A stretch of DNA of 64,000 nucleotides. It comes from Capitulum mitella (lineage: Eukaryota; Arthropoda; Thecostraca; Pollicipedomorpha; Pollicipedidae). Location of the stretch: positions 39,977,891-40,041,890 of the forward strand of contig CP099839.1 of the NCBI GenBank assembly GCA_030062745.1, read 5' to 3'. The position numbers and the translations under genes were made by a program. The notes beneath the pieces are model-generated. The model saw only the letters and a list, made by a program, of their open reading frames with translations, ran no database searches and was not told where the DNA came from. Below are positions 5,138-50,247 of this stretch, in pieces. Every line of letters starts with the position of its first letter. Within the stretch, counting starts at the first letter, position 1.

Positions 5138-5790
5138 TTAACCCTCGCCGGGGCGACCTCCAGATGCACCTTCGCCGGGCCCTGGAGCTGACAATCACCA
5201 CACCATTTCCCCGAGATCTCGAGAACCATAAGTCCCAGAATAAAAGAAAAAAAACACCGTTGGCGTCAGAGAGATGGGAAAGGGCGTTTGAGGCCAGATG
5301 AACCATTTCAAGAAAAGCGGAAAATGAAGGAAGACATCGTCTTTTTCTGTGGACAAGAGTCTTGTTTTTCTGAATGTATTAGTATGTGCTTTGGGTGGAA
5401 TACGCCGCAAATGTGTCTTACACGCATATGAAGACCACAACTTATGACACTGAAGCCAAACAAGGTGAGACTGGGTCGAGGTAATAACGCCTATACGTCG
5501 GCTGATGCTTTCCTGGTGTCTGTCGCGTCATCCGCCACATTAACATTGGTCATATACAATGCAGCATAACATTCTATAACATTTGTTTTGGAACATGGTC
5601 TTAACTGATTTGTCAATGGAGATAAGGAAGGACAATGACCTACAAATTTACGCAAGGTGTAAAAGTGACGTATAAGAAAGTACTTCAGGTTTTGCCCTAT
5701 CTTTGCGCCTTTTTCTTTTTTAGCTATCCTCAAAAAAATTGAGAAGGGTGCTCAACCACCCCCCGCCCCCTCCGGCCCGCGGAAGGTTAA
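5138..5790. mobile_element. TTAA-flanked non-autonomous element, family D (piggyBac-like MITE)
   Basis: The element is bounded by TTAA at 5138-5141 and 5787-5790. The left end begins TTAACCCTCGCCGG; the right end, reverse-complemented, begins TTAACCTTCCGCGGG. At the left end the motif TCGCCGGG occurs twice, 27 bp apart; at the right end its counterpart occurs once, next to the terminus. This is the asymmetric arrangement seen in families A-C. A GAGATCTCGAGAAC motif lies about 75 bp inside the left end, as in family A. There is no transposase frame. It is a single copy with imperfect termini, so confidence is moderate. Confidence 0.5.
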
Positions 5791-6589
5791 GCTGGAAAAG
5801 AACGTTTCCCAGTGAAATGCAGGGATGTACCGGATCGAGTTTTACCTGCAAAGTACCGGAAAGCAGTATTTCGGATAATGCGGCGAAATGACAGGATAAT
5901 ACAATATGCATAGAAGCGAATGAAAAATCAGTGCCAATTAAACGCATGAGAAAATGCAATGACAATGAATCACTTAGTCCCTAACACACAATGATACTGC
6001 CCGAAACTTCATGCTGGAAATGGCTAAACTTCTATGAGACTGACGGGAAATGTTTTCCTCTACCTTTCATGAACATCTGCCGGATATTTCCCTTTTTAAT
6101 TGGCATGTCAGTTCCTCTAAAAACCCAGCTCGTTCCCTGGATACCGACGAGAAATCTCACGAATGAAACACTTGTCCATTAGATATTGTTGTTACAAATA
6201 ATGTGCATATTTGTTGCAAGTATCCTATTTTACCAGATGCGTTTTAGGATGAGTTGGTCTGTGGGAACGCTAGTTCCTTTTGCCGATGTTTTCCGGTAGA
6301 TTTCCAAAAAAAAAATATTCATTTTCACCAGGGAGTTTGAGTTTAGCTTTTCGAGGCCATGCACCACATTTTTAGATCGCTCCCCTCTTCCATAGTTCTG
6401 CATCCACGACTGCTTCGATCCAAATTTTGTCGTCGAAACTAGCAGAAAAATTAGACAAAGACGTAATATGCCAGTATTATTATATCTGCCTTCTTGACAA
6501 CTACTTGTACCAACTGTGTGGATACTGCTATGTGCGCAAGAGCTCCCCAGCAGTATTGCCAGCAGCCACTCTTTGGTGGAGAGAGCTAC
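5791..6589. other. Non-coding stretch
   Basis: AT-rich sequence with no recognisable coding, RNA or element signature. Confidence 0.5.
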
Positions 6590-7110
6590 GATGGGCGCGC
6601 AGGAGGCTACTCTCCGTCGGTCTCGATCTCAGTTCCGGCGGGGGGCAGTGATCAAGCCTCCCACCCACTTGATCACCACCAATTTACGCGCGTTATCGCG
6701 TCTGGGTGCTCCGGTTGTCAGCAGATCGCTCAGTGTGCGGGCCGTCTGTCGCCGGGCGGCCGTCAGTCTCCGAGGAGCTGTCTCTTTGGCGTCCATCGTC
6801 AGGCTCCGAGGAGCCGCCTCCTCGGCGTCCATCCGTCAGCGCAGCCTCGCCTCCCGCGCGCCGATCGCCGACCGTCAGCGCGCCGACGTGGCAGCGCCGC
6901 TGCGCCGGCTTCGCGTGTCCGGGAGCCAGCTGACTGCGCCCGCCCGGCCGCTGAGGAAACGCCGCGGGGGGCGCGGCGGACGCGGCGCAGTAATAAATAC
7001 GCGCCGTAATGGCATCGCCAGGGGCTGCCAGTTCAATCGACTGCTCGCTGCTCGGTCGGACACGAGCGCCACGCGCCGGACGCGGGCTCGAAACGACCGT
7101 CTGGGGATCC
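6590..7110. other. GC/CpG-rich patch
   Basis: CpG-dense block with local near-repeats such as GCTCCGAGGAGC around 6770-6830. Frames are open on both strands because of composition. No protein similarity recognised. Confidence 0.4.
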
Positions 7111-8210
7111 ACCTTTCGTCTTCAATGTGAGCGATCGATCCACTTTTCCTAGGTTAATTCACAAGAGAACTATTTCAATATGAAAACGTAATATTTCATA
7201 GATTGGTATATAATCAAAATGAGTTGTCTAGCTTTTTTTGGGGAGGGGTAAATTGACCCTTTACCACCCGAGCGTGTGTATACACAAATGATACAACAAA
7301 GCAATACCTCAACTGTGAATGTAAAGTTCGAAGAATCCTCTAGTCAGCAAATCCTGCACCATAAACACAGTGTATGTACTCGTAGGAGTGTGCATAACTG
7401 TAGAGTTGTAAGCAGGAATAATGTTTCTGAGTATTCGCCCACTGATTTCCTCATGTACCTGCCCCAACAAACGTGTTCAGGCTATGTAAAATAAGGCGTG
7501 CCCTTCTGCGGCACCGTCACCGCCTCAGGCCCCCATTTGGTCGTCAGGAATTTCTGAAAGTCAGAATTTGTACTGATCTCCTCCCAATGCGGCACACTGC
7601 AGTTAGTGACCGCGCAACCTTTGACACATTTAAGCTGGTTTCAGCTCATCCTGAAGATTAAGGTATTTGAACTTCGTTGAGACATTTGCAGCCAAGTCCC
7701 ACCAGCACGGTCTCCAAGGAAACAGGTCTCTGTTTCTGTTTTAGCCAAGTGACTTAACCCACTGTTGTGGCTTATCGAGATTGTCCCTGGAAACAGAGCC
7801 ACAGAAAATGACGCCAAGGTATCCCACTAAATGATGCAAGCCAAACGATGTTTTCCGTGGACTAAAGTCCGGACGTATTCTTTGGCTGGTCACGATCGCT
7901 GTCCGATTGCTATGCACAATAATCATAACACCGAGAAGCAGTGGAACGTTTTGAAAGCTACACCGGGTCGTCGCCCCTCATGATAGCCAACGCACCACTC
8001 CCGAAAGCCAACGTTAGCCATGTGGTGGAAAAGCCCACTGAGGAAGTCTTCGTTTAGTCGGCAGGGAACCTAAGGTAGCCTCAATGCCATCCGCTCAATG
8101 AGCCTTGGGCGTTCGACCATGCGTCGCACAGACTCAAATATGCAGATATGCTCAAATATGCAAATTAAGATGCACCGGGCCAAGAGCACGCGCTCGGCCC
8201 CTCCCGCACT
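7111..8210. other. Non-coding stretch
   Basis: No recognisable gene or element. Short open frames only. Confidence 0.5.
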
Positions 8211-8214
8211 CACT

Positions 8215-8480
8215 GAGATGCGCTGATGCGCCCCCGGCTGAGAGCACCGTCAGCTCAGCACAGCGGCCCGCGGCTGGCCCGCGCCGGCCCAAGCTCGCCT
8301 GCGCGGCCGCCTCACGGCTCGGCGTGCGGCGCTGACGGGACGGGCTGGAGTCTCGCTGAGCTCGGCACGATGGCGTCCCCCGGCGGCCACTCGAGCCGGC
8401 CGGACCTGACCGAGAGCACTGCTCTTCTCTGGCCAGCACCGCGAAACACCGCACAGCCGCGCTGGCACCGGCTCGCCGTC
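8215..8480. other. GC/CpG-rich patch
   Basis: CpG-dense segment between AT-rich flanks. Possible promoter-type island; no transcript or protein can be supported. Confidence 0.35.
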
Positions 8481-8601
8481 CTCCGCTTGGTCCAGTCGTG
8501 AATAATTCACTGCTGCGAAGCGTATTGTTACCCCACACCTCTTCAGCGTGAAGTGCCTTGTACGTCAGGCAGGCAGAGAAAGAGTCGAAACTATTCCCCC
8601 T

Positions 8602-8675
8602 CGTGGTCAGGCGCAGACGCCGGACGGCGAAATTCGGAGTGTGCAGATACTGGGTTCAAGTCCCAAACCCGGCAC
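8602..8675 (+). other. tRNA-like segment with Pol III A and B boxes (SINE head or tRNA relic)
   Basis: GGTTCAAGTCC at 8653-8663 matches the B-box consensus perfectly. AGGCGCAG starting at 8609 fits an A box except for its first base. The start-to-start distance is 44 bases, as in a tRNA without extra bases. The T stem pairs at four of five positions and an anticodon-like stem CCGGA/TTCGG is possible, but the loop is one base long and the acceptor stem does not pair. It is therefore unlikely to be a working tRNA; a tRNA-derived SINE head or decayed tRNA is more plausible. Confidence 0.35.
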
Positions 8676-9627
8676 TTGTATTTAGCCGGAGACCGAAAGC
8701 GTCAGTGCAGGGCACGGTCATATCTTCCGCGGGAAATCATTACACAAATAAAGTGTTGTCGGTGAATCAACCACTACTTGAACTTAAATTCAACAGCAAA
8801 TTCCCCTCCCCAAAAAAGCGTTTTTGTTTTGCCAGTCTTTTTTGCGTCTTGCCCTGTATAAAAATGGCCTAAACATCCATCTGTTTCGTTGAGCCCGATA
8901 CTTTTTTACAGTATGTTCCTGGCCCTTTTCACGTCCTGCTGGCTTTTGTGGGATGAAATGAACGAAATCTATCTGGGAATCTATCAGGATTTTTACCTCA
9001 TGCCAATGCCGTTATTTCAGTCGCAATTTGTGACTTGAGTGCGGCAGTTAAACTGATGCTGCGTGTCTCAGCAGGCGATATATTCCAGAAGAGCTGTACC
9101 AATGGGCCGGAGGCAGGAGCGATCGACCAAGGCACGGAACAGAGGGATTACGGACCGGCAAGATTCTAGAGAGGAATGCTGCCCAAATCGATATCGTTAG
9201 CCAAGGAGAAATTTGCATCGCAGCGAGTGGGGCTGACAAACAGAGCGGCGCAGTGCACACGGCAGACCAAGAAGGCTGTATGCCTGGTCGGGCAGAAAAA
9301 CGAGGATAAATGCGGCGCAAGTAATAAACTGTTAAACAATTGCATCCATCTTTTGATTCCGATTGGAAGGAAACATGCTCATTGTCATTAGCTACTTTGC
9401 CGAGTCTTGTGTAAACTTGTCAGGCCTGTATTGTCAAAACAGATCCTCCAAAACGAGGTCCTGGCATCCCTTAATTTGTTTGTTAAAGTCAGCTTCTAAA
9501 GGGCATATATACATGTATATGTGTATATGCATGTGAAGGTGCATTTATTCTACATTAAATGTATTGCTGAGATATATAGACCTAAAAAGGCAGCGAGGTG
9601 TCGGCGTGTTCTGACATTAAGTTTAAT
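8676..9627. other. Non-coding stretch
   Basis: No gene recognised. AT-rich sequence with a short TATA/TGTA-rich segment near 9500-9540. Confidence 0.5.
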
Positions 9628-10637
9628 TTCATACGCGCACTGGAAGGGGGTCTTTTTGTGCCCCCACCTGTTTTTTAATATCTCGAGAACGGACCGGAGC
9701 TGGTTGCCGCTACTTCGTGAAAATTATGACAATTGAATAACTCGTCAAATAGCGCAGAAGAATTGGAAATCGGCCAGAAATTTTTGAAGTGTCAAGCATT
9801 TGAAGTCAGGCAAGCATGATGAAAACGACGGTTGTCGCTGACAAATGGTATCTTTGTGAAAGGACCAGCGTTCTATCTAAGATCACCGTTTGAACACAAT
9901 CACGCGACGTCATTTGGGCATAAGTGATGGATGTACTAAGACCAAAGTCAGGGTCAATAACGGTTAAGGTCATCAAAGATCAAGGTCGAACAGTTTGTGA
10001 CCTGATCCAGATTTGCTTTGCAATATGTCGATTTGTATGAAATATGCATTCAAAAACCCTAGTAAAAACACGTTGACACACTGATAGTTAAGTATATACA
10101 TATATACTTATACACACACACAAATAGAAATGCTGGAAATGACAAAATGTATCGATGTTGACTACCTTCACTGAAAATACGCCAAAAGATACGTGTTCCG
10201 CCCTCATTTACACTCAAGCTGCCCCGTGTTGCTCGAAGTCTGGTCTCAAAAGATGAAAAAATGACGCCATACATCAATGATCTGACATGACCTCGCCCCG
10301 AAATCCGCATTCAAGACGCCAGATGGATGGAACTTGTCGCATTCCTGGTTTTAACGGCCAAACAAACATTCTTTTCCCGTTTCGTTCGAAAAGTTGTACG
10401 GAATGGCTTGTACGGGCCGAGAAAGTGTCAAAAGTTGTCTTTTTCAGCCCCATTTGACCTTGAACATATTAATCTAGGGTAATAAAAATTGCACACAATG
10501 TAAACCGTTGTCGTCCCACCCTGTCCATAAAATTTCATGTCTCTAGCTCTTTCCGTTTCCGAGGCCAAACGAGGGCACTTTTTGACCTCCCTTCCAGTGC
10601 GCGTTAACACGAAATCCCCTTCCACTGCGCGTGTTAA
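9628..10637 (+). mobile_element. TTAA-type non-autonomous element, family B, copy 1 (near full length)
   Basis: The right end terminates at TTAA (10634-10637). Reverse-complemented it reads TTAACACGCGCAGTGG, with a second copy of the motif (CGCGCACTGGAAGG) 28 bp further in. The left end has the motif once (9634 onward), with a degraded TTAA (TTCA at 9628). The left half is repeated in inverse orientation at 28030-28553 and the right half in direct orientation at about 40480-40999. ATCTCGAGAACGG lies about 50 bp inside the left end. No transposase frame is present. AGGTCA-like half-sites occur near 9966 and 9982. Confidence 0.7.
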
Positions 10638-10959
10638 CGCATGCATTAATCACCATATTAGGAGACAATCTGTGGCAGCTCCTGCTCATAGACGTTTACT
10701 GCGTATACTGAGGTGGCCGGTGATGGTCAGTTCTGTAATCTGGCCTCAACCTCAGGAGGAGCTTGACTTTTGAGGGCTCTTTGGACTGGTTGAATTGCAC
10801 GGTAGCTTTGTTTCAACGAAACTTACACTCAATTCTCGTCCCAATTTGTGTCACGCAAGTTACGTTAGCCATTCATTCCTAACATTTAGATGTATCAGAT
10901 GGCTTTTTTGGCTGACATTCCCAAGATTTCGTTGCACTATTTTCGGACATTCTGGAGAG

Positions 10960-12160: not shown

Positions 12161-12162
12161 TG

Positions 12163-15200: not shown

Positions 15201-16180
15201 ACGAGACGTGGTAAACTGTTTTGGATAACACATGACGTAAACCATGCAAAATTCAAGTTATTTTTAAGTCTCTATTCTCAGTTTGTGTCTACAAGGTGAA
15301 GCACATGACGACGCATCAGGAAGTTCCACTTAAAGCACGACATCCATTACTCGGAGACGGTACATCATTGAAACAATATCAAACACGGCGCATCATTTAT
15401 TCGGGCTCTTACAGTCAATGTGGAGCGTGCAGGGCCTCCCAAACACTCATCCGATATCAGGCAGCAATGGCTTATCAAAACTCGATGCCCATGGTGTGTC
15501 GTAATAAAACTGTAATCCATCGTGGCGACTGGGGACAAAATGGGACGATAAATCATCGCGGATATCGATCAAGAAAACGAAATTTAATCCCGCTGAGAGT
15601 GGATATCCCGCCCCGATGGGCAAACAATGTTGATGGAGGTGTAGCCGGATGAGGGTGTTTGCGGCGGCTAAGTGTGGCTAAGGCGGCACCACGCCGCTTC
15701 TTTGGTTCTCATCGTCTTAACCGCATTCTGAATCTCACACCTCGGTTGCCCACCTCCCGAACTCATGGAATGCTAAATGACCAGCTGTCGTTTGGCGACC
15801 GGCATGGTGCCTGTGGTAGATTCGGAATGGCTGAGCGTTCTGGGTCTGATATGTGTGGACTGTCCCTCTTAATGGCGTGAGTCGGCCGCTGAGTGCTCGG
15901 TCCGTCTTCAATGAAACGTCTACATGTGGAACCACCTGCCCATACGACGGTTGCCTGAACGCCGATAGCTGTTTTTCTTCAGACAGATGCTATCTGGAAA
16001 CCTGTGGTAGAGCTATTCCTATTTTAGTCTTCTGCCTTAACCGTATTCCCGTTCCCATAATGTTAAAGCGCATTTTCATAGCCCACCCCCCTTCACCCCC
16101 ACCATGACAACTACCATGACATTAGCCACACCAGCGCTGTCATGATTAAACCTCATGATAAGCCTTAAAAATGTTTACAT
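12230..16180. other. Non-coding stretch, AT-rich
   Basis: No recognisable gene across nearly 4 kb. A G-run lies near 12340. A perfect hairpin is listed separately (13411-13441). A segment near 13670-13760 (around CCTATTCGGCCGTG) resembles 34275-34365 and may be a minor dispersed repeat. Confidence 0.45.
13411..13441. repeat. Perfect 12-bp inverted repeat, 7-base loop
   Basis: GAGACTTTGTCA at 13411-13422 is the exact reverse complement of 13430-13441. A smaller hairpin, ACCTC/GAGGT, lies just upstream around 13387-13401. No element boundary was identified around the pair. Confidence 0.85.
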
Positions 16181-16189
16181 AAAAGTAAA

Positions 16190-16480
16190 TGTTAATTCTT
16201 GACCTTGACTCGACCTTTTGAAATAGTCCCATGTTAACAATTTTTTATGTTTGCCCAATTATTTACCTATGCGCTCACATAAAATTTCAAGTTCTATCTT
16301 AAATTCCAGAACTCCAGATTAGATTGCAGGAACTCCATTTTTGACACCCGTTTTCCTTTTACCCCCATCACTGCCGAAAACGGTCTTCGAAAAACTTGGC
16401 TAGCTCGGCGTCGGGGCAAAATAAAACTATAAAAAATTGGCATAATACGTAGGGACAATAGATAGGCTAAGTCAGTAACT
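16190..16480 (-). mobile_element. Diverged fragment related to family A element
   Basis: Successive blocks match the family A copy at 32470-32720 in the same order: a CTTGAC(C)TGACCTT-like block, TTTGCCCAA(T/C)TATTTA, AGTTCTATCTTAAA, ACCCGTTTTCCTTTTACCC versus CATTTTCCTTTTACCC, and GGGGCAAAATA(A)AA. Similarity is well below that among the four full copies. No TTAA-bounded ends are found, so this is an old or truncated relative, in minus orientation relative to copy 1. Confidence 0.55.
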
Positions 16481-16489
16481 TCCATGCAG

Positions 16490-18855
16490 CTGCTTAAAAA
16501 AAATCCGTGAAGTGATGAGGTAAAAACAGAGGGTGCTTTTAAAGCCCATCCACATACAGGACTAGTGTTATCCGAAACTTTCTATCGTGTGCTATTGTTC
16601 AAGGTTATATGTAATTCGTTATCTACAATATTTCGCCATTCACCGTTGCTAAGCTCTGTTCTAAAGGCAAGTAGCCATAGGATATATATTTTTTAGCGTG
16701 ATTAGCTGAGTTTGGATAGAATTCTTGTTTTTCGGATTCTGTAGTCGTTATTGTTTTGATATTACATCGGGCGAGTTTTAATCGTGACCTTGCGCGAATT
16801 CCAAGTTAGGGGAACGGAAACAGTCGTTTTGGTGACAAATTTTCTGATTTTCACCATCTGGCTATTGGCTGCGTTAAAAAGTAAACGGAGCGCCTCCTAA
16901 CGACTCCCTGGAGCTTCGCCTGACGTCTGTTTACGATGTAGAGGCATCTGACTCCAGGCAACTGACGCTTTGTCGTGGGACATCAGAGGAAGGCCTCGCT
17001 CAGAAGGTGCGCGTGAAACGGCCGTATTTGTTGGGAACAGTGTTGTTTGCTGCGCCGTGTACACCCCCTGACAATGGGGCCCGTGCACAGCTTTCGAATG
17101 GCTTCAGTCGACTTCATCTCTTACGACGTTCACATTGTCCTAAAGTGACCCTCGACTGATTTCGTAATCAGACTTCTGGCCCGTTGCGACACGATTCCTA
17201 GGAAGTGGCTTCTGGCGTGAATTTGGCCGAGATCGGATTGTAAAGGAGCATGTGGTCATAATTCAAGAGACAACAATATTTTTCCCCATACCGCCTAAGG
17301 ATGTATTAAAAAATGACGGCTCATGGACGTGGATGCTAGGTGCAGATCCCCGAATGAAAAAGCGTACACTATGTTCCCAAGAAAATCTACTCAAAATGGT
17401 GATCAGTTACTGTTCGGAGTCCGGCTGCATGGGTTAAAAATCCCCTCAACCTTACGCGAGCGATGGACGTTCGTCGTGATTTTTTCCTTTTTTGGGATTG
17501 CCATCTACGAGTGCGGGTCTGCGCAACATTTCTTTACAGTCCATCGAGTGGTAGTCTGGGAAACGTTGGACAGTCGGCAGCCCAGAGGCCATAACGGACT
17601 TTATAATGCTGCCCCATTGGGGGCGATGGAAATGGATGCAGAGATCGCTTTGTAGTAACGATGCACTATCTGTGCGACGGGCTACCATAAGTAGGTTACA
17701 AAACCTCGACAACGCAGACGGAGGTGTGGTAGAAATTACCTTGGACGAAGAGAACAGCGAACTAATATACCAGAAAAACTAATCATATGCTATTTTGCGC
17801 ATTTTCTGCTTAAATATGACGCCATAGTTTTTGGAAACGGTATTCTGTGCGTTAATGTGTGATACAAACCCGCATGTTTGAGTTCATGCATTAAAGTCCT
17901 AATGAAAGTACCAATGAGAGCGTATTCCAAATCTGTGGATCAAAAAAACTGAGCATCATTATTTTAGTCTATTGTTATTTCCACACCAGCAGTCCATTAG
18001 TTGAACATCACCGCCAGCCACTTTGAAGAACCTCTCATATTTCAGACCCGGACTTCGCAGGATCACTTTTCACCGGCAAAAACATTCCCTTATGGATCCA
18101 CAATGCTACCGTGGCACCCCTGAAACGACCGCGAACAATGGCGAAAGGAAGGGTCTAATATTCGATTACTCAGATGCTTCCTCAACAGGAACACCGGCTT
18201 TGGAAGGGGGCGTAACCGCGCAGTTGACACTCAGACACCCGTCCTGGGCACTGGAGAGGAATAACCAGCTCATGTTACGATGTGCTCGTAACATCGGAAC
18301 ATATCTGAATGCATTCCGAAAATGTCCGGGCATTCTGTGACTGGCTACCACCGAACTAAATGACCCAGAAAAGGCCAAAGATGGCATTGCTACAGCGATA
18401 CAGTTGACCAAGCACTTGGACATAGAAACCGTCCGTAACATTTCAAATTAATTCAGTTTTATTCCCATCCATCAAGCTTACGATAACTGTTCCAGCTAAA
18501 AATAAAACAGACGTTAGACGACGGTGACCCAGTTTTTCAGTAAGGATGCCAGTGCAACTGTAAATTATCCGAGTTTGTATCAGATGCAGGCTTCTGGCGT
18601 GGTCCACTAAATCAGCGCTGGTCCCGGAAAATTATCCGTCTTGAACTGGATTCAGCCTTGTCAGTGGGTCCCGAGCGGGCACGACGGCGCCGACTGTGCG
18701 GGGGCGCGCTTTCTTAAGCTCCGTTTTATGGACGAGCTGTCGGGGTTTTAAAGCTGCATGGCCTGACTTCGACTAGCACATGTGAGCTGCGGACACGGTA
18801 GGAAGGAACATGGTAAATGCCCATAAAGCTAGAGACTTCGTGCCACAGCGATATG
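16490..18855. other. Non-coding stretch
   Basis: No recognisable gene, RNA or element. The longest frames here show no motif. Confidence 0.45.
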
Positions 18856-28029: not shown

Positions 28030-28553
28030 GCTGACCACCATGATAAACAGAAACCCACAAGTCCTGGTCGACAATCGAACGGTGAAAGTGAATGTCCCCC
28101 GCGATATCGAATGGAGGGTTGGGTCTTTGAATGCATATTTCATATAAATCGACGTATTGGCATGCAAATCTGACCAGGTCACAAAAAGTTACCCTTGACC
28201 TTTGATGACCTAGACCCGTTATGGCCCTGGCTTTGGTCTTGGTACATCCATCACTTATGCCCGAATGACGTCGCCTGATTGTGTTCAAGCGGTAATCTTA
28301 GGTAGAGCGCTGGTCCTTTCACAAAGTTCCCATTTGTCAGCGACAACGGTTATTTTCGTTATGTTTGTTTGACTTCAAATGCTTGAAACTTCGAAAACTT
28401 CCGGCCGGTTTTTGATTTGCTGCGTCAATCGACGAGTTATTCAATGACCATAAATATCACAAAGCAACAGCAACCAGCTTCAATCCGTTTTCGAGATTTT
28501 CAAGAAAAACAGGTGGGGGGTACAAAAAGACCCTCTTCCAGTGCTCGTGTTAC
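28030..28553 (-). mobile_element. Family B element, copy 2 (left half only)
   Basis: This is the reverse complement of roughly 9628-10100 in copy 1: the GTCAGCGACAACGGT block, CTGGTCCTTTCACAAAG, CATCACTTATGCCCGAATGACGTCG and TTGAATGCATATTTCAT all match in inverse order. The outer end reads (rc) G-TAACACGAGCACTGG, a mutated TTAACACGCGCACTGG, with the terminal motif present once, as expected for the left end. The other end is missing, so the copy is truncated. Confidence 0.7.
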
Positions 28554-29713: not shown

Positions 29714-30949
29714 TTAACCCTATTCCCGGCAGGGGGGGGGGCGGAACCGCCCCCCCTCAGGTTTTTTGCTTGCCAATTCCAGGCTTTTTAACGCAGCTTC
29801 ACGAAACTTGGTGACTTTTCCTAGCTATTCTTTTGTACGTGCTGTGACAAAATTTCACAATTCTGTTTTGCTCAGGGGCGGAGCCAGGCAACGTTTTTGG
29901 GAGGCACTTCATGCCATTTTTGGCCATGTTGAGGGTAAAAGAAAAATGTCTGCCAAAAACAGTGTTTTAAAGCTAAAACTTAAAACCTTATATGGATGTA
30001 TAGCTAAATAGTTGGGCAATGTGCAGATATGATTTTGTTTATCTGAGGTCATTTTACAAGGTCAAGTCAAGGTCAAAAGTCAAAATTTGTTTTTTTTGCA
30101 ATAATTTCGGTGCCGTCTTCTTAAATGCCAAACCCGGAATATATATGACGTAGAAGGGTGCCTTCTGCTTGTGTACCAAGTTTCAGCTTGATATCAGGTC
30201 GGGTCACGGAGCTATGACCTAAAATGTCAGTGCGCGTACCCTATATCGCAATAGCCGTAAAATGAAATTTTTGAAATAGAGTGAATTCGAATGATTGAAA
30301 ACGTTTACAGATAATATTCAATGCACACGAGATCATTCCAAGTGACCCCAAGGCCACTGGAGGTCATTTAAGGTCAAAGGTCACAAGTTGATCTGAGAAA
30401 CGTGTGACCATGACAGTTCCCCTTTTTCATGTCCCTGGCACCGCCTATGCTAACATTATACAAACATTGTAATGCGATTTTTACTTCTTTAGTATAACAT
30501 GACTATCAGAAGCCAAAAAATGGTGTTTGCCTCTTTTGTTCATTCAGTTGTTAGAAAACTAATCCTCCTATTTTTGAAACCCTGTGAACGCCCATGAATT
30601 TTCTCAAAATTTCAGATTTGCGGACCCATGGTAAAAGCCCTATTCATATTCTATCGATTCATGCCAGTTTCATCGAAATCACAACGAAATCGAAAGGTCC
30701 ATAAACAACGGAGTTATAAGAAGTCCAAAAGTACCTCCCATTTTGACATTTTTGCCCCCCTGTATCCACAAATTTTAAAATTTTGAAAATTTGTTTTTAT
30801 AAAAATGTATTTCACGTCACGGCAAATCGATTGCCGTTTGTTGCAATGAAATCGGACAAGTAGTTCTCGAGATCTCAGGGGGGGGGGCCGAATCCGCCCC
30901 CCCTGCCGGGAATCGGACATACCGTCTAGCCCTCCGGGAATAGGGTTAA
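29714..30949 (+). mobile_element. Family A TTAA-flanked element, copy 1 (full length)
   Basis: TTAA at 29714-29717 and 30946-30949. Left end TTAACCCTATTCCCGG followed by CAGGGGG; right end (rc) begins with the same 16 bases, then AGGGCTAGACGG and so on, then repeats ATTCCCGGCAGGGG 28 bp further in. Both ends continue into a G-run/C-run palindrome around CGGAATCCG. GATCTCGAGAAC lies about 75 bp inside the right end. The internal ~1.1 kb has no transposase frame, so it is non-autonomous. It carries many AGGTCA half-sites, including TCAAGGTCA (30067-30075) and a perfect DR1, AGGTCAAAGGTCA (30371-30383). Confidence 0.85.
30371..30383 (+). promoter_or_regulatory. DR1 nuclear-receptor-type site in family A copy 1
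   Basis: AGGTCAAAGGTCA is two perfect AGGTCA half-sites in direct repeat with a 1-base spacer, the classic DR1 site for RXR/USP heterodimers and HNF4. The match is seen; any binding is inferred. Confidence 0.5.
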
Positions 30950-31299
30950 GAGCTCTTAAGAGCCAGTCTGAAATGAAGTCATATGATATATTTCGAGAAC
31001 CTCGTCCGCTTAAAGCAAAACTTTTCGGAAGTTTGCGTGATACAAATAAATTGCTCACAATATCACACTGAAGCATAAAACACACAGTTCAGCCACATAG
31101 ACACATTGCAAGACATGCCGAGATTTCGTGAGCCGCGAACACCATTTTCGCTCTTCAGACGAGCCCTAAAGAAATCTAAAGACGAGCACTGAAGACCGGC
31201 AGGAAACAGCCGGTGCCATGCACAGACGACACGGTACGAGACAGCACGCAGAGTGGCTGTCAGCCTGACTCTGAGCAGAGCAAGCTGGTCTAATCTGGC

Positions 31300-31581
31300 C
31301 TACTGAGTGTCTCGACGAGCCGTATCACGTTGCCGGTTGAAGAGGATTTGGACCGCCACTGGGACAATGACATCGTTTAGCGCTCTGTAAACCTTGATGC
31401 AGTCGCGCAATAAGTTTGGTAACTCTGGACCGCCCCGAGGGCCGGGGAACGGGTGAAATGCGTTCGGCGCGCCGCGTCCCGACACCACGCAGGCTGCAGA
31501 GTTTGCATCTTTAGATGCGCGCCAGCTGGCTGTCCACAGCGCCACCCCAGACTGGTAAGCAGTACAAGATTTAGGGAACAC
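31300..31581 (-). other. Unrecognised open frame of 93 codons between two family A copies
   Basis: A continuous minus-strand frame with a mixed, protein-like composition, including LPNLLRDCIKVYRALNDV. It lies between the inverted family A copies and downstream, in the minus direction, of the retrotransposon relic at 32860-34290. It could be a displaced retroelement fragment, a host exon or chance. I do not recognise it. Confidence 0.15.
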
Positions 31582-31616
31582 CTGAGGCTAGATGATAGTT
31601 AAGAGAGTTTTGGGTC

Positions 31617-32832
31617 TTAACCCTATTCCCGGAGGGCTAGACGGTATGGCCGATTCCCGGCAGGGGGGGCGGATTCGGCCCCCCCCCTGAGATCTCGAGA
31701 ACTACCTATCCGATTTCATTGCAACAAACGGCAATCGATTTGCCGTGACGTGAACTACATTTTTATAAAAAGAAATTTTCAAAATTTTGAAATTTGTGGA
31801 TACAGGGGGCCAAAAATGTCAAAATGGGGGGTACTTTTTGACTTCTTATAACTCCGTTGTTTATGGACCGATTGCAATGAAACTGGCATGAAACGAGAGA
31901 TTATGAATAAGGCTTTTACCATGGGTATGCAAATTTGAAATTTTGAGAAAATTCATGGGCCTTCACAGGGTTTCAAAAATAGGGGATTGGTTTTCTAATA
32001 ACGGAATGAACAAAAGAGGCCAAAACACTTTTTTAGCTTCTGCTAGTCATGTTATGCTAAAGAAGTACAAATCGCATTACAATGTTTGTATAATGTTAAC
32101 ATAGGCGGTGCCAAGGACATAAAAAAGGGGGAACTGTCATGGTCACACGTTCTTCAGATCAACTTGTGACCTTTGACCTTAAATGACCTCCAGTGACCTT
32201 GGGGTCACCTGGAATGATGCCGTGTGCATTCAATATTATCTGTAAACGTTTTTAATCGATTGAATTCATTCTATTCCAAAAAATTCATTTTTTGGCTTTT
32301 GCGATATAGGGTACGCGCACTGACATTTTAGGTCATATCTCCGTGACCCGACCTGATATCAAGCTGAAACTTGGTACACAAGTAGAGGGCGCCTTTCTAC
32401 GTCATGTATATTCCGGGTTTGGTATTTGAAAGAACGGCGCCGAAATTATTGCGAAAAAACAAATTTTGACTTTTGACCTTGACCTGACCTTGTAAAGTGA
32501 CCTCAGATAAACAAAATTACATATGCACATTGCCCAACTATTTAGCTATACATTCATATAAAGTTTTAGGTTCTATCTTAAAAACTCTGCTTTTGGCAGA
32601 CATTTTCCTTTTACCCTCAACATGGCCAAAAATGACCTGAGGTGCCTCCCAAAAACGTTGCCTGGCTCCGCCCCTGAGCAAAATAGAATTTCGAAATTTT
32701 GTCACGGCGCGTAGAAGGAATAGCTAGGAAAAGTCACCAAGTTTCGTGAAGCTGTGTTAAAAAGCCTGGAATTGGCAAGAAAAAAACCCGAGGGGTGGGC
32801 GGATTCCGCCCCCCTGCCGGGAATAGGATTAA
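31617..32832 (-). mobile_element. Family A element, copy 2 (inverted)
   Basis: TTAA at 31617-31620 and 32829-32832. It is the reverse complement of copy 1 over its whole length. The long end (TTAACCCTATTCCCGGAGGG..., inner ATTCCCGGCAGGGG 28 bp displaced) is on the left here, and the short end is GCCGGGAATAGGATTAA on the right. The DR1 is intact (rc, 32167-32179). No coding capacity. Its right end abuts the LINE relic at about 32860. Confidence 0.85.
32167..32179 (-). promoter_or_regulatory. DR1 nuclear-receptor-type site in family A copy 2
   Basis: TGACCTTTGACCT on the plus strand, i.e. a perfect AGGTCA-A-AGGTCA on minus, at the position homologous to the site in copy 1. Confidence 0.5.
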
Positions 32833-32859: not shown

Positions 32860-34290
32860 AAATGAAATGAAAAATGAATGCCAATACACCGTCGTACCAC
32901 AAATGGCAAGTGGTTTTCGAAAGAGAACGATTGGTCCATGATGAGCCCTAGAACTTTGATTTTGATAGCGTTGATGTATGGCTGGACATTGCAAGGGAGA
33001 AAAATGCCTGCTCATGACAACACGCCTAGTACCTAACAGTGAGAAGGCAGTTTTTGATGGATTCATTTTGAAGGTATTCACTTCAAGCCGAAGTTGTCCG
33101 GAAGAAAGACATTCCTGGAGGCGAATTTTGAGCTGCGACATACACCGTCCTTTGCAGAACAGTGCAGCAGCTGAGAGTCGTCAGCATAGCTAGTGTGGCA
33201 GCCGTAGGGGGAAAGTTTTGGATTTCGTTAACCGTTAAACGACAGAAGATTGGGCCCACTATGGACCCCTGAGGAGCACCGCATGACACAGAACAGACCG
33301 CCACACCGCCGCGAACAACCTGCTTCCGGCCATCCAGATAGCTGGCAAACCAGTGATCGAGAATACCAACCATATCATCCCATTTTGTCGAGGAGGACGC
33401 CGTGGTCAACGTTGTCGAAGTCCTGGCTTAAATCAAGTGCCGTTATCGATACTAGAGGGCCGGCATCAATCTTAGAGGTGATCCACTCCACAGCGTCGAC
33501 CAGGGTCTCCTCCGTAGGGTGGTTGCTTTGGTAGGCATACTGATCAGAGCTCAGAATATTGTTTTCATGCAGATACGTGGTCAGCTGAGTAGAAACAACA
33601 CGTGCGGTCATTTTGGACATCATGGAAAACAAAGTGATTGGTCTAAAATTGCTGGCGCTGATGTTGCCGAACTTATGAACTGAGACCACGCTAGCCATTT
33701 TCCACTTGGCAGAGACTGTGGATGCGACTGAGACATTGATCAAATGCAGCAGCATGAGTCCAATGATCGGACAACATTGTCACACGGCACTTATCGGCAC
33801 TCCATCCAACGCAGCCGCCCTGGAGCTGCTCATGCGCCTAGCTTCGACAACCCTGGCAAAGTGGCTGGTTTCAGCTCAAAACTGGAAACGTACGCAGTCG
33901 TAGGACGAGGCAGTATGTGATCAGCGCCAAGGTCACAATTCAGATCAGCACGCAGCTCCTCTCCCACTCGGGCGCCAACCGACGTAAAACACTCGTTAAA
34001 CGCGCCAGCCTGCGTCGTGCTGATCAAGGTCTTTCTAGCCCTGACGGAGTCAGAGAACTGCTTGAGTCGCCCTCAGAAACAAACTACCATATTCGCTTCT
34101 GGCCAATGCGTGACACAGAAAATCTTTGCGTGAACCGATGAGTTGATTGGCTCTTAACATGACTTCGAAGTAGACGGTAGAGAGTGTGGTCTCGCTGTCT
34201 TCGATGGTTGATTTAGTCCAACGTAGAATAGTTCTCAAAACCCTACGTTTACGGAGGTTGAAAACGATTTCTGATAGTTTTCCCATACCT
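32860..34290 (-). pseudogene. Broken non-LTR retrotransposon, reverse transcriptase region (LINE relic 1)
   Basis: Minus-strand frames give, in order, a pre-RT linker (FNECFTSVG, about 34000), the RT finger motif NFRPITLFSMMSKM, motif A LDLSQDFDNVDH (about 33430), DHWFASYLDGRK and CGAPQGSIVGP (motif B), an intact YADDS catalytic box (33188-33174, another frame), NPSKTAF, and a MDQSFSFENHL-like segment (about 32940). This order is that of CR1/Jockey-type LINE reverse transcriptases. The protein is spread over several frames, so it is inactive. The endonuclease part and 3' end are missing. The 3' side is cut at the family A copy 2 boundary. Confidence 0.85.
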
Positions 34291-37976: not shown

Positions 37977-39166
37977 TTAACCCGATTCCCGGCAGGGGGC
38001 TGAATCCGTCACCTCGCTCGTGTTTTTTTGCTTGCCAATTTCAGGGTTTGTGACACAGCTTTACGAAACTTGGTGACTTTTCCTAGCTATCCTTGCCACA
38101 TGTTGCAACAAAATTTCGTAACTCTATTTTGTTCAGGGGCGACGCCAAGCAACGTTTTTGGGAGGCACCTTAGGCCATTTTTGGCCCTGTTGAGGGTAAA
38201 AGGAAAATGTCTGCCAAAATAGCGTTTTTAAGACAGAACTTACAACTTCATATGCATGTATAGCTAAATATATGGGCAACATACAAATTTAATGTTGTAT
38301 GTGTGAGGGCACTTGGCAAATTCAAGTCAAGGTCAAAAGTCAAAATTTGGTTTTATGGTAATAATTTTGGCGCTTTCTTTTCAAATGAAAAACTCGAAAT
38401 ACACATGACAAAGAAGGGTGCCCTCTACTTCATGGAGCTATGACCTAGAATGCCAGTGCGCGCACGCTATATCACAACAGCCGTAAAATAGAATTTTAGA
38501 AACTGGGTGGATTTAAATGACTGTATACGTTTTCAAATAATGCAAAATGCTCACAAAATCATTCCAGGTGACTAAAAGGTCATTGGAGGTCATTTCAAGT
38601 CAAAGGTCGTAAGTTAACCTGAAAAACGTGTGACCATGACAGTCCCCCCTTTTCCATGTCCCTGGTACCGCCTTTGCTAACATTATACTAACATTGTAAT
38701 ACGATTTGTACGTCTTCAGCATAACATGACTATTAGAATTTTAAAACGTGTTTTTAACTTTTTTATTCAGTTTTTGGAAAAGGAATCCTCCTATTTTCGA
38801 AAATCTGTGAACGCCTATTAATTTTCCCAAAATTTCAGGTGTATGGGACAACGGTAAAAGTTGCATCCATATCATCCATATCATAATTTCCCGATTCATG
38901 CCAATTTCATCAAAATCGGTCCATAAACGACAAAGTTATAACAAGTCGAAAAATATCTCCCATTTTGACTTTTTTGCCCTCCTGTATCCACCTTTTTCAA
39001 CATTTTGAAAACCTCTTTTTTAAAGTGTAGTTTACGTCATAGGAAATCGATTGCCGTATGTTACGATGAAATCGTACGTGTGGTTCTCGAGCTCTCAGGG
39101 GGAGGCGGAATCCGCGCCCGTGCCGGGAATCGGCCATACCGTCTAGCCCTCCGGGAATAGAGTTAA
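37977..39166 (+). mobile_element. Family A element, copy 3 (full length, most diverged)
   Basis: TTAA at 37977-37980 and 39163-39166. Left end TTAACCCGATTCCCGGCAGGGGG; right end (rc) TTAACTCTATTCCCGG with the inner ATTCCCGG again 28 bp displaced. It aligns with copy 1 throughout, with more substitutions and small deletions. The DR1 position has decayed to AAGTCAAAGGTCG (near 38596-38608). Confidence 0.85.
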
Positions 39167-40479: not shown

Positions 40480-40999
40480 CGTGAACACTGAAAGTGACCA
40501 GATGTACCGATGTTGGCTATCTTCACTGAAAGTACACTGAATGATGCGTTTAGCGTCCGCATTTACACTCAAGGTACACCAGCATGCTGTGTTGCTCGAA
40601 GTCTGATCCGCAGAAATAAGAAATGGGATCATAGGTCAATACCATGGCATGACCTCGACCCGAAATCCTCACTTAAGACTTTAGATAAATGGAAGTTTGT
40701 CGTATTCTACGTATTTTGACGCTCTAACATTCGCACTTGTCCCGTTTCGTCCGAAACGCCGTACGGAAGGGCTGTACGGATCGAGAGTGTCCAAAATTGG
40801 TCTTTTCGACCCCATTTGACCTGAAAGATATTGACCTAGGGTTACGAAAGCTGCGCACAACGTCATTTTTTATGACCTTGCCCTACCCGGAAAATTCCGT
40901 ATTTCTAGCTCCTTCCGTTGACGAGTGGAGGACGAGTGGGCACAAAAGTGTCCTTCCAGTGCGCGTTAGCGTGAAACCCCTTTCCACTGTTCGTGTTAA
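40480..40999 (+). mobile_element. Family B element, copy 3 (right half)
   Basis: Matches about 10130-10637 of copy 1 in direct orientation, including CATTTACACTCAAG, GTTGCTCGAAGTCTG, CATGACCTCG(A/C)CCCGAAATCC and the doubled terminal motif with 28-bp spacing. The left half is missing. Its terminal TTAA (40996-40999) is also the left TTAA of family C. Confidence 0.75.
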
Positions 41000-41830
41000 C
41001 CCTCGGAGGACGAGGAGTGAATGCTACTTCCCAAAGGAGTGTTTCAGGGGCCACGGCAATGCGGCGCACGACAACGTCGTGAAATTTGGCATAGCTGACG
41101 ATACATTCATTGCGCATCTTTCGAAGAAAAGTGACCCCAGGTCCTCTTGGGCCATCGAGATATGGCGTCATTGTTGAAGGCTTGCAGAACGAATTTCGCG
41201 CCAAAAGTTTCTTTTTACTGATTTAGGGCAAAAGGTATCCATCAGCGGTAGATGATGGACATGAAATCAGTTCCAAATGGTAGTCCACATGCGAACGGGT
41301 CATTTAAGATAGGTCGATAAAGTAAAATACACGAAATATCTCACAATTTTTCCTCATAGCAATAAGTTTCAGCAGTAAAATGATGGAATCGCAAGACGGT
41401 AGTGTAAGCATTCCGTAAAACGTAAACAGCCATCTAAGCTGCTGTACGCCTATAAATCGAATATATGAAACTACTGACTTGAGACGACATTTTTGATCTT
41501 AAAACGTTCCCTTATTAAATTTTGGGATTGGATATGGTAAAGGAGACGATGCTGGCCCATTTGACTCAAAGACGTCGTTTTTAACGTTGGAAAATCAACT
41601 TATAGTTCCAGAGCATAAAGTTTTACCTGACCTAGAAGATCACCGGTTGACTGGTTGACCGAACGTGGTCCGACGGGATACCGTTAGATTCCTTGGGCAC
41701 ATATCTATCGACTGCTTTTTGCCCCGTGGGGCTAACTCAGTTGGGCGTCGAATGGCGAGGGAGAGTGCCTACCACCCCACCTCCTCGTCGTCGGTGTGAG
41801 TGAAGATCCCTCCCGTCCGGCGAGGGTTAA
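40996..41830. mobile_element. Family C TTAA-flanked non-autonomous element
   Basis: TTAA at 40996-40999 and 41827-41830, with a shared 10-base end, TTAACCCTCG. The inner motif GACGAGGAG begins at base 14 from the left end and at base 42 from the right end, a 28-bp displacement. 835 bp in total, with no transposase frame. It joins the end of family B copy 3 exactly at a TTAA, consistent with insertion into the TTAA flanking that element. Confidence 0.7.
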
Positions 41831-41834: not shown

Positions 41835-42465
41835 TCTTAGTCATGTATCATGTCGATTTAACTTATTACTAAGTGGTCATAGCAGAAGGCTTAAACAATT
41901 AATAGCATTCTAATTTCAGTAAACGAATTGCCATTGTGGGCAAATGTATTCGACTTATGAACGCATTGTAACTTAGACGGATGTTTTTAGGTCTAGGTCA
42001 ACTTTTTACGGTGTGCTTACACTCTCGTCTTGCGATTCAATCATTTAGCTGTTAAAACCTATTGCTATGAAGAAAAGCTATTGTCAGATATTTCGTGTAT
42101 CTTTACTTCATCCACGACAATGGAGAAGAACGCTACATCACGCACAACTGGGACCAGAAATTTGAGGCCAGGTTTCATTAATGGTCATTACATTGGACGG
42201 ATAGCTCATCTTGACAAGCGGAGTATAATGAATGAAACCGCAGTGCTCATGCCAAGTGAGCGGTACAAAAATGGAACACAGATTCCTAAAAGCTGCTGCT
42301 CTGGGTGGGCTCTAGCTCCCTCGTGCTCGGAGCCCGCACCCAAACATGGTCATTGAACCATCAGTCCTGCTCAGCACCATTTAGTATGCATTGGCAGCAC
42401 GATTAAATCAGCATATCCCGCGGATCATGTAAATTTCCGCCCGCGTGCGTCAGCTCACTTGAAGT
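41835..42465. other. Non-coding stretch
   Basis: No recognisable gene or element; AT-rich with short frames only. Confidence 0.4.
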
Positions 42466-43400: not shown

Positions 43401-43404
43401 AGTG

Positions 43405-44376: not shown

Positions 44377-44413
<37 letters not shown>

Positions 44414-45185: not shown

Positions 45186-45189
45186 TAGT

Positions 45190-46811: not shown

Positions 46812-46814
46812 CTG

Positions 46815-49070
46815 ATCACTCTATATTGGCGCACCCTGCCTGACATTCGTGACGCGCTGTGGTTTCGTGGCTCCAGGACGCTACAACGTCGACGGAACCG
46901 CCCTGTGCACTGACTGGCGTGACATTCCATGAGTGGGGTGCGTACGCTGTCATTACGACATGTTCGTTCTCCATGGGATCAGACGACCTTTATCGTATCA
47001 GATGACCTCGACCTTTATCTTGAAAACTTGCAACAGGTTCACTTTCGAAGGCCCACGCGTCCCTGACTCCCGTCTGGCCGCCGCGACCGTGCGCAGGTGA
47101 CCCCGCGGTGACCTTTCGCCTCGGGCGCGTGAGGCCGCCGCCGGAAGCCAGGTACCAGCCCGACGAGACCAACGAGAAACCAGACTGCCGCCGCCTGATC
47201 GCGTTTCATCTATTTTGGACGGCCCTCGCGTCTGAAGCTGCGTGGACGCCAGGGCCGGAAAGCGGCCCGGTCGGGGATTCACGCACTCGATTACCTAATA
47301 CACGCCGGAAGTGACGGTTATCTCAGAGCTGTATGCGCTAACAGCAGATGGCTGAGATGAAATGAAGAAGCACTTGACATGAAGCCGACCAAAAGACTAA
47401 TCTGGCTAGCTGAATGAACTATGAGTGGCGTTGGCTGTCACCAGCGTCGACAGTTTATTTTGAGCAGACGGTGTCAGCGCTTCTGTCAGGATTAAGCTCG
47501 ATTTTGTCGCTCCAGGAGGAATAAGGTTCTATTTTCTTCCGAGAGCGCATAGATTTGAAGGAGCCTTCGACAGCTTCTGAGGTCAGCGTGCCGTCATACA
47601 TGATCCGCACACCGCGCACCATTCCCCTGCTCCATATTTTCCGGTTCCCAATGGAAGACGGCATCGACATGCTAGACAGGATTACGTTCGGATTAGCTGC
47701 GACAGCCACCAGCCAGAGGCGACGTTTGGCCTCCGGCAGAGAGCACCTTTCACCTCGTCCGGGACAAGTCTCAGATTGTGCTCCGATGGCCCTCTCAGAA
47801 AGCTATCTCATGTGCTCCTCTCCGAAACCCAAAAATATATGCTCAAAATATGAAAATTCTATAAAATCGAAATCAAGATGTAGAATGGATATATATTTAT
47901 TTCATGTGTCACATGATTACATCCATATCCGAAGTTCCGTTAGTGCAAAACCATGTTGAAGCGAACAGTCCCATGACATTTACAAATAGCGTCCTATCTT
48001 CGTTATGCGTTGTTGTTATGGTGAACTTTCCGTATCCTAAAAACAGGTCTCCACCCAATCCAGGTCAGCCCGTTGTTCATGCATCCAGCTGTGACTGTCT
48101 GGTCCAACGAACACGTTGTTTCTTCCCGGCTCTGCTTCCCCTGTTAGGCACGAGCCATCACGGTCATCGCGTGGACCGCGCAGCAGTGATGTGTTTCTGT
48201 CAGTTATGTGATGTGGAATTCGGAACCAACAGGCCGCGTAACCCATCTCTGGCACTCTTGACGCTAAACATGCCAGTTTGGACACGAGCTAATAATAGTC
48301 GAATAGAATTACTCCGCTCCGAATAAACAATGCTTCGGAATATCCACGACGGGACGATGGCTATGTGCGACGTTCCAGGACACGTCGACCAGGCACCTAC
48401 CAAAATTTGCACACCGTATGATTTAGATTTTTTTCGAAATTTGGTCCGGTTAGCAATCTGTGGATGAGATGTCGTATTTCCACTTTTCATTTCGGTCTGA
48501 AAATCGGTTTCCGTGCTAGGGCAACTTAGAATTTAAAAATCCAATTATTTTTGGCCCAGTCCTTGTTGAAATAACGTGTGTTATTTCAGACACCGATGAC
48601 CGCATTTTCAGAAAACTGGGTATCGTTTTGATGAAGACAGAATGCTGCATCTTTCTCCTATTCGCATTTTACGAAATATTTTTTGCTTTTATTTTAATCT
48701 TAAAACCTATTTTCAAAGTCAGCTTTCAAAGGTGTGGCTAGCGATAAATATTGAAGCCTTTGACAGATGAAATGTTTTGAAAAGGTTTCCGATTGGTTTG
48801 AAATCAAGAAAAGTTCCCCATTCTTGGTTTTACTGTTGCAAATTGAACACTAAATTCGCGATATTTTCACCGACAACGTCCTTGTCGGGGATTTCCGACC
48901 TGGATCGGCAGAAAGTGAAGACCGAAAAAAATGGTTCTGGCCATCCGAGGTCAATATATCAATACGTCGTGAATTACGAGGGTATGCACAGTGTTAAATA
49001 TAAACATGGAGAACTTTGCTCGGTACAGAACGAATCAGAATCTTTAAGAAAACATCTCACCTGTGCACGA
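46815..49070. other. Non-coding stretch with a small GC-rich patch
   Basis: No gene recognised. A short CpG-rich patch lies at about 47040-47300. The rest is AT-rich with short frames. Confidence 0.45.
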
Positions 49071-49072
49071 CT

Positions 49073-50247
49073 TTAACCCACCAGGGGGAATCCGCCCCCC
49101 CCGGGTTTTTGCTGCCAATTCCAGGCTTTTGACGCAGCTTCACGAAACTGGTGACTTTCCTAGCTATCCTTCTACGCGCCGCACAAAATTTCGAAATTCT
49201 ATTTTGCTCAGGGCGGAGCCAGGCAACGTTTTTGGAGGCACCTCAGGTCATTTTGGCCATGTTGAGGGTAAAAGGAAAATGTCTGCCAAAAACAGAGTTT
49301 TTAAGATAGAACTTAAAACTTTATATGAATATATAGCTAAATGGTTGGCAATGTGCATAGTAATTTTGTTTATCTGAGGTCACTTTACAAGGTCAGGTCA
49401 AGGTCAAAAGTCAAAATTTGTTTTTTCGCAATAATTTCGGCGCCGTTTTTCCAATGTCAAACCCGGAAATATAGACGTAGAACGATGCCCTCTACTTGTG
49501 TACCAAGTTTCAGCTTGATATCAGGTCAGGCACGAAGCTATGACCAAAATGGCAGTGCGCGACCCTATATCGCAAAAGCCAAAAAATGAATTTTTGAAAT
49601 AGAGTGAATTTAATCGATTAAAAACGTTTACAGATAATATTGAATGCACACGACATCATTCCAGGTGACCCGAAGGTCACTGGAGGTCATTTAAGGTCAA
49701 AGGTCATAAGTTGATCTGAGAAACGTGTACCAACAGTTCCCCCTTTTTTATGTCCCTGGCACCGCCTATGCTAACATTATACAAACATTGCAATGCGATT
49801 TGAACTTCTTTAGCATAACATGACTAGCAGAAGCTAAAAAAGTGTTTTGGCTTCTTTGTCATTCCGTTATTGGAAAACTAATCCCCCTATTTTGAAACCC
49901 TGTAACGCCCATGAATTTTCTCAAAATTTCAAATTTGCATACCCATGGTAAAAGCCCTATCCATAATCTCTCGATTCATGCCAGTTTCATTGAAATCGGT
50001 CAATAAACAACGGAGTTATAAGAAGTCAAAAAGACCCCCCATTTGACATTTTTGCCCCCCTGTATCCACAAATTTCAAAATTTGAAAATTTCTTTTTATA
50101 AAAATGTAGTTCACGTGACGGCAAATCGATTGCCGTTTGTTGCGATAAAATCGGATAAGTAGTTCTCGAGATCTCAGGGGGGGGGCCGAATCCGCCCCCC
50201 CTGCCGGGAATCGGCCATACCGTCTAGCCCTCCGGGAATAGGGTTAA
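49073..50247 (+). mobile_element. Family A element, copy 4 (full length)
   Basis: TTAA at 49073-49076 and 50244-50247. The left end is slightly eroded (TTAACCCACCAGGGGG). The right end carries the doubled ATTCCCGG motif with 28-bp spacing. It closely resembles copies 1 and 2 but has many single-base deletions in homopolymer runs. The DR1 is perfect (49694-49706). No coding capacity. Confidence 0.85.
49694..49706 (+). promoter_or_regulatory. DR1 nuclear-receptor-type site in family A copy 4
   Basis: A perfect AGGTCA-A-AGGTCA at the homologous position to copies 1 and 2, despite frequent small deletions elsewhere in this copy. Confidence 0.5.

What the first reader, a model, noticed from the sequence alone, without database searches (positions are those of the whole stretch)
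5138..50247. Four sequence-distinct element families share a 28-bp end asymmetry typical of piggyBac
Families A (four copies), B, C and probably D are all bounded by TTAA, yet their internal sequences differ. In each, the inner terminal motif sits next to the terminus at one end and is displaced inward at the other. By direct counting the displacement is 28 bp for A (ATTCCCGG at base 9 versus 37), B (CGCGCACTGG at 7 versus 35) and C (GACGAGGAG at 14 versus 42), and 27 bp for D. In canonical piggyBac the internal repeat is separated from the terminal repeat by 3 bp at one end and 31 bp at the other, the same 28-bp difference. The displaced end usually also carries a second copy of the motif at the terminus. 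This suggests several non-autonomous families mobilised by one or more piggyBac-type transposases that recognise this geometry.
Basis: partly seen in the sequence, partly recalled or inferred. Interest (0 to 1): 0.85.

Follow-up and report, generated by a model that had tools for sequence, protein, structure and literature searches.

The report
Cut-down piggyBac-type jumping elements
This stretch of what is probably an animal genome holds several short, gene-less jumping elements whose two ends differ by a constant 27-28 base step, the same lopsided design as the moth transposon piggyBac, which suggests that this spacing, not the exact letters, is what the moving enzyme needs.

Summary
Families A (3 of 4 copies measurable) and B give an unambiguous 28-bp displacement; C gives 28 and D gives 27 with weaker matches. 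A blind scan of TTAA pairs for an outer repeat plus a displaced copy at any offset from 8 to 45 returned six hits: five at 28, one at 23. Three of the five are A copies, one is C, one is probably chance; B and D miss its criteria. Recalled moth piggyBac ends show the same pattern (28, 0, 27). Kolobok is excluded by terminal bases. Corrections: C and D right ends share 14 bases, so there are three end types; A and D share a subterminal block whose 11-base core is also in B; a palindrome beside the inner motif is clear only in A, by a test that is itself insensitive. No transposase was found in the window and the host genome could not be searched. Best reading: non-autonomous piggyBac-type elements whose right end carries an extra 27-28 bp transposase-binding step. 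This is a new member of a known kind; the new point is that the spacing persists while the motifs differ.

The parts
29714..30949 (+). Family A copy 1 (LE left, RE right)
   Evidence: TTAA both sides; motif ATTCCCGG at 9 (LE) and 37 (RE)
31617..32832 (-). Family A copy 2 (RE left, LE right), 90.6% identical to copy 1
   Evidence: TTAA both sides, offset 28
37977..39166 (+). Family A copy 3, about 77-78% identical to the other copies
   Evidence: TTAA both sides, offset 28
49073..50247 (+). Family A copy 4; RE step intact, LE motif lost
30906..30949 (-). A copy 1 right end: outer motif and inner motif 28 bp apart
   Evidence: ATTCCCGG on the minus strand at 30906 and 30934; same step in A2, A3, A4
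9628..10637 (+). Family B full copy (left TTAA decayed to TTCA)
   Evidence: CGCGCACTGG at 7 (LE) and 35 (RE)
28121..28553 (-). Family B left-end fragment (TTAA decayed to GTAA), 83% identical
40488..40999 (+). Family B right-end fragment, 71% identical; shares its terminal TTAA with C
40996..41830 (+). Family C (LE left, RE right), single copy
   Evidence: TTAACCCTCG at both ends; displaced match at 28
5138..5790 (-). Family D (RE left, LE right), single copy
   Evidence: TTAACC at both ends; displaced match at 27; RE shares 14 bases with C RE
5216..5226 (+). ATCTCGAGAAC subterminal block in D; also at 9680 (B1), 31692 (A2), 30863 (A1, minus) and 50162 (A4, minus)
   Evidence: 5 of 5 exact occurrences in the window lie in these elements

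Best explanation
A, B, C and D are non-autonomous elements (about 650-1240 bp, no long reading frame) of the piggyBac superfamily, moved by cut-and-paste into TTAA by one or more transposases encoded elsewhere. Shown here: TTAA ends, short terminal repeats (weak in D), and a right end that carries an extra 27-28 bp step which shifts the inner motif inward; in A, B and D it also repeats the terminal motif. Inferred, by analogy with moth piggyBac and piggyBat: a catalytic transposase dimer binds the two tips, and a second, non-catalytic dimer binds the inner motif of the right end, 27-28 bp further in. The step therefore sets where the inner dimer sits and favours left-right over like-like end pairing. 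The step length is kept while the motif letters differ between the three end types, as expected if the shape of the protein complex, not the DNA letters, is constrained.
For: Displacements: A 28 (3 of 3 measurable copies), B 28, C 28, D 27. Blind scan: 28 five times, 23 once, none at the other 36 offsets. Recalled piggyBac LE35/RE63 through the same script: 28 (palindrome), 0 (TIR), 27 (inner core motif). PMC7351741 (passages): RE63 is LE35 with a 17-bp insertion and a duplicated segment; RE bp 34-63 are almost identical to LE bp 7-35; with native transposase in cells LE35/LE35 is inactive and RE63/RE63 excises but does not integrate; inserting 5 bp into RE, or randomising the duplicated box, each cuts activity by about half. 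PMC13405395 (preprint, passages): the piggyBat transpososome is an asymmetric tetramer with a catalytic outer and an inactive inner dimer. Termini of the CC[C/T]T type quoted in PMC2872659 in C, D and most A ends. In A a palindrome stands out in 5 of 7 ends scored.
Against: No piggyBac transposase found in the window with piggyBac and piggyBat core sequences (best tblastn E 2.7, best hmmsearch E 0.91). The palindrome is not above chance in B, C, D or A3, though the same test gives only p 0.12 for the true piggyBac left end. D is 27 not 28; C and D are single copies with short matches. B lacks CC[C/T]T; A2's left end (TCCT), A3's right end (CTCT) and A4's left end (CCCA) depart from it. With the hyperactive transposase, like-like end pairs do work to some degree (PMC7351741), so the asymmetry is not absolute. 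piggyBat and PGBD3/MER85 have other layouts (PMC11707139, PMC3459987, passages), so the step is not universal in the superfamily.
Confidence: 0.85

Rival explanations
1. The families are TTAA-targeting Kolobok-type elements, not piggyBac.
For: Kolobok also makes TTAA duplications and is widespread in animals (PMC9587614, passages).
Against: Kolobok termini are 5'-RR...YY-3'; every end read here begins with a pyrimidine after TTAA (CC, CT, TC, CA or TA). The displaced inner repeat matches piggyBac.
Confidence: 0.03
2. The shared step is mere common descent: all four derive from one ancestral element and have not lost its end layout, so it says nothing about constraint.
For: C and D right ends share TTAACCCTCGCCGG (1 of the 553 other TTAA ends does); D's left end differs from C's right end at 5 of 23 bases, although two other ends differ at only 6; A RE and D RE share 17 of 18 bases about 69-89 bp in (BLAST E about 0.08); ATCTCGAGAAC occurs 5 of 5 times inside these elements.
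Against: The motifs that carry the step (ATTCCCGG, CGCGCACTGG, CGCCGGG/GACGAGGAG) are unrelated by eye, so the letters turned over while the spacing did not.
Confidence: 0.3
3. A and B have the step, but C and D match 27-28 by chance after the reader searched for it.
For: At any offset, shuffles reach C's score 9 of 500 and D's 43 of 500 times; among 1306 TTAA pairs outside the elements, 8 reach 8 and 4 reach 9 at +/-27 or 28. A chance-looking ATAT pair beats C in the joint scan. C has no within-end repeat at 28.
Against: At the pre-set offsets 27/28 only 0 of 5000 (C) and 5 of 5000 (D) shuffles do; C is recovered by the blind scan that also asks for an outer TIR; C and D share a terminus, found independently of the step.
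Confidence: 0.2

Closest known systems
piggyBac (IFP2) of Trichoplusia ni, LE35/RE63
   Same: TTAA, CCCT terminus, short TIR, inner repeat displaced by 28 bp at one end, duplicated core motif at the displaced end at 27 (recalled ends; layout in PMC7351741)
   Different: Elements here are non-autonomous; motif letters unrelated; palindromic inner repeat clear only in A
CsuPLE1.1 of Chilo suppressalis (PMC4273485, passages)
   Different: Carries a 505-aa transposase frame; the offset is not stated in the passages seen
piggyBat (Myotis lucifugus)
   Same: TTAA, asymmetric ends, CAC-type start as in B (recalled), tetrameric synapse
   Different: LE motifs at bp 11, 55 and 99 (44 apart) and no such palindrome in RE (PMC11707139, PMC13405395, passages)
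MER85 / PGBD3 (human)
   Same: MER85s are short non-autonomous piggyBac-type elements in TTAA
   Different: MER85 has one palindrome, 3 bp from the 5' TIR and 96 bp from the 3' TIR (PMC3459987, passages)
CMITE of corals (PMC2872659, passages)
   Same: Several piggyBac-type MITE families in one genome that share internal sequence more than ends
   Different: About 100 bp; a 28-bp end step is not mentioned in the passages seen

Membership tests
piggyBac superfamily (non-autonomous) | TTAA target duplication at both ends | tested here: met
   A1-A4, C and D have TTAA at both ends; B1 has TTAA right and TTCA left, B2 GTAA left. No empty site could be examined.
piggyBac superfamily (non-autonomous) | Terminal CC[C/T]T motif (PMC2872659) | tested here: met
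   C and D at both ends and 5 of 8 A ends (not A2 LE, A3 RE, A4 LE); B begins CAC, which PMC10140906 reports for many bee piggyBacs
piggyBac superfamily (non-autonomous) | Short terminal inverted repeats | tested here: met
   Offset-0 matches: A1 12 bp, B1 17 bp with one mismatch, C 13 bp with two; none in the top four diagonals for D
piggyBac superfamily (non-autonomous) | DDD transposase in an autonomous partner | not testable with these tools
   None found in the window; the genome search answered none of 12 requests
T. ni-type piggyBac end architecture | Inner repeat displaced by 28 bp at one end | tested here: met
   A 28, B 28, C 28; D 27
T. ni-type piggyBac end architecture | Palindromic inner repeat (CRD site) beside the inner motif | tested here: inconclusive
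   Clear in 5 of 7 A ends; not above chance in A3, B, C, D; the positive control is weak (piggyBac LE p 0.12, RE 0.02)
Kolobok | Termini 5'-RR and YY-3' with TTAA duplication | tested here: not met
   Every end read begins with a pyrimidine after TTAA (rule from PMC9587614)

The most novel reading that the evidence does not exclude
The 27-28 bp left/right step is a pairing rule of the T. ni-like branch of piggyBac, comparable in logic to the 12/23 rule of V(D)J recombination: families whose end motifs have diverged beyond recognition, or that follow different transposases, keep the step because the outer and inner transposase dimers must sit at that spacing.
Probability: 0.35. Interest if true: 0.65.

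Novelty: new member of a known kind. Interest (0 to 1): 0.45.

Why it matters
The asymmetry of piggyBac ends is called puzzling and enigmatic in the structural paper (PMC7351741, passages). Natural families with unrelated motifs but the same 27-28 bp step would be independent evidence that spacing is what is selected, and they supply ready-made end pairs to test how the asymmetric transpososome forms.

Tried and rejected
Host genome: PF13843 in the window's own assembly was asked 11 times and never answered, so no autonomous partner and no genome-wide consensus could be sought. Exact patterns for A's right end found nothing in viral contigs or genome contigs. A 16-base B motif gave 5 viral-contig hits, none with TTAA in the 40 bases before it, taken as chance. 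The piggyBac left end is not in viral contigs; transposase relatives were not found there with one protein and one two-sequence alignment. A1 has no match in plasmids. Rfam: no match at gathering scores. Of six reading frames scanned against Pfam, two matched, none a transposase. First scans: a pair scan without the outer-repeat condition gave 17 TTAA hits at mixed offsets, and its control tetramers were swamped by the A1/A2 inverted pair, so I did not rely on it. A single-end scan gave 26 TTAA ends, 5 at 28 (A1-A4, B1) and D at 27; control tetramers showed small clusters too, for example ATTA 3 at 28 and TATA 3 at 27. Palindromes as a general signature are not supported for B, C and D. A within-end repeat at 28 is not found in C. 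A degenerate A relative at about 16.18-16.50 kb (minus) has no measurable ends. The fifth TTAA hit (22044/23696) looks like chance and is not counted as a family.
Full report
What was checked. The window is probably animal DNA: of six reading frames scanned against Pfam, 55095-57062 encodes a rhodopsin-type receptor (7tm_1, E 6.9e-66) and 33375-33779 a reverse-transcriptase fragment. The organism was not identified. The four claimed families were re-read from the sequence.

Measurements. Comparing each left end with its right end along all diagonals from -45 to +45, the best diagonal is 28 in A1, A2, A3, B1, the two mixed pairings with the B fragments, and C; it is 27 in D. The ordinary terminal repeat (diagonal 0) is second best in A3, B1, C and the B2-left/B1-right pairing, third in A1, A2 and the B3-right/B1-left pairing, and not in the top four for D. 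The recalled piggyBac LE35/RE63 ends, passed through the same script, give 28 for the palindrome, 0 for the TIR and 27 for the inner core motif, so a family at 27 is not outside the canonical pattern.

Chance. A1 and B1 are beyond doubt (0 of 1000 shuffles each at 27/28, 0 of 500 at any offset; A2 and A3 were not shuffled). C is 0 of 5000 at 27/28 and 9 of 500 at any offset; D is 5 of 5000 and 43 of 500. Among 1306 TTAA pairs outside the elements, 8 reach a score of 8 and 4 reach 9 at +/-27 or 28. The blind scan ran over 2732 TTAA pairs, less those joining the inside of A1 to the inside of A2, and asked for both an outer and a displaced repeat: offsets 28 (five) and 23 (one) out of 8-45. The five are A1, A2, A3, C and one probable chance pair. 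B is missed because its left TTAA is decayed; D apparently because its outer repeat is weak. Fifteen other palindromic tetramers gave 0-3 hits each at 27-29, 11 in all; two are family B itself, and one A/T-rich ATAT pair scored 19.0, above C's 17.5. So A carries the scan, and C is supported but not proven by it. A scan of 554 single TTAA ends for a repeat of the outer 18 bases (at least 12 of 18) gave 4 ends at 28 and 1 at 27, but also 3 at 18, 2 at 16 and singles at eight other offsets; by their scores the four at 28 are A1, A2, A4 and B1, while A3 (10), B3 (11) and D (11) fall below the cut, so the one at 27 is not D. The single-end signal alone is modest; an earlier version says the same.

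Corrections to the finding. A4 has lost its left motif, so three of four A copies carry the measurement. B's left boundary rests on a decayed TTAA, backed by a second left end (28553, GTAA) and a second right end (40999). C and D are not independent: their right ends share TTAACCCTCGCCGG, which 1 of the 553 other TTAA ends shares with C. D's left end differs from C's right end at 5 of 23 bases, but two further ends differ at 6, so that second resemblance is modest. A and D right ends share 17 of 18 bases 69-89 bp in (BLAST E about 0.08), and the 11-mer ATCTCGAGAAC occurs five times in the window, all five inside A1, A2, A4, B1 and D. By hand from those coordinates it lies 39-47 bp inside the inner motif in all three families, so it moves with the inner motif; in B it is on the left-end side, in A and D on the right-end side. 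AGGTCA half-sites are about seven times denser in the elements (46 in 8,280 bp against 44 in 55,720 bp), 44 of the 46 in A and B. The families look like relatives with three end types.

Mechanism. PMC7351741 (passages) describes RE63 as LE35 plus a 17-bp insertion and a duplicated segment, reports that LE35/LE35 does not move in cells with native transposase (with the hyperactive enzyme it does somewhat), and that a 5-bp insertion or loss of the duplicated box each lowers activity by about half. The authors propose a second, inner dimer on the right end. PMC13405395 (preprint, passages) shows for piggyBat an asymmetric tetramer with a catalytic outer and an inactive inner dimer. The elements here have the layout of the former, so such an assembly is the most likely mechanism; this is inference, as no transposase was found. 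A palindrome beside the inner motif, the expected site of the C-terminal zinc domain, is clear in A (5 of 7 ends) but not in A3, B, C or D. The test is insensitive: the true piggyBac ends score p 0.12 and 0.02. Their transposases may also use a different site, as piggyBat's zinc domain does (PMC11707139, passages).

Family. Kolobok is excluded by its RR/YY termini (PMC9587614, passages). The seven elements measured lack coding capacity (longest stop-free run 72-110 codons). They fit non-autonomous piggyBac elements. The geometry is that of the T. ni element, not that of piggyBat or MER85 (PMC11707139, PMC3459987, passages). In eight literature searches (one search listed 8 of 79 papers) I saw asymmetry reported for single elements. 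In the listings and passages that I saw, no paper states a constant 28-bp step across families; I read no paper whole, and the library lacks most subscription papers, including PMC9825180.

Verdict. The extra value is the comparison: three unrelated end motifs with one step length.

Noticed in passing
40996-40999: The right end of a B fragment and the left end of C share one TTAA, as if one element had inserted into the other's flanking TTAA.
   Followed up: partly
29714-32832: Two A copies (90.6% identical) lie in inverted orientation 667 bp apart.
   Followed up: no
A and B elements: AGGTCA half-sites, resembling nuclear-receptor sites (label recalled), are about seven times denser inside the elements than outside.
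   Followed up: partly
49073-50247: By eye A4 carries many short deletions relative to A2, which could be decay or long-read sequencing error.
   Followed up: no
16181-16500 and 16037: A diverged A relative (67-77% identity in short pieces, minus strand); TTAACCGTATTCCCG at 16037 resembles A's right terminus but I saw no inner motif.
   Followed up: partly
42001-42115: A fragment 83% identical to part of C's interior, inverted, just beyond C.
   Followed up: no
55095-57062: Stop-free frame for a rhodopsin-type GPCR with a long glycine run near its C-terminus (7tm_1, E 6.9e-66).
   Followed up: no
10060-10132: Fragment B2 stops at B1 position 432 and B3 starts at 506; the stretch between holds TA/CA simple repeats, so B interiors may break or be swapped there.
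   Followed up: no
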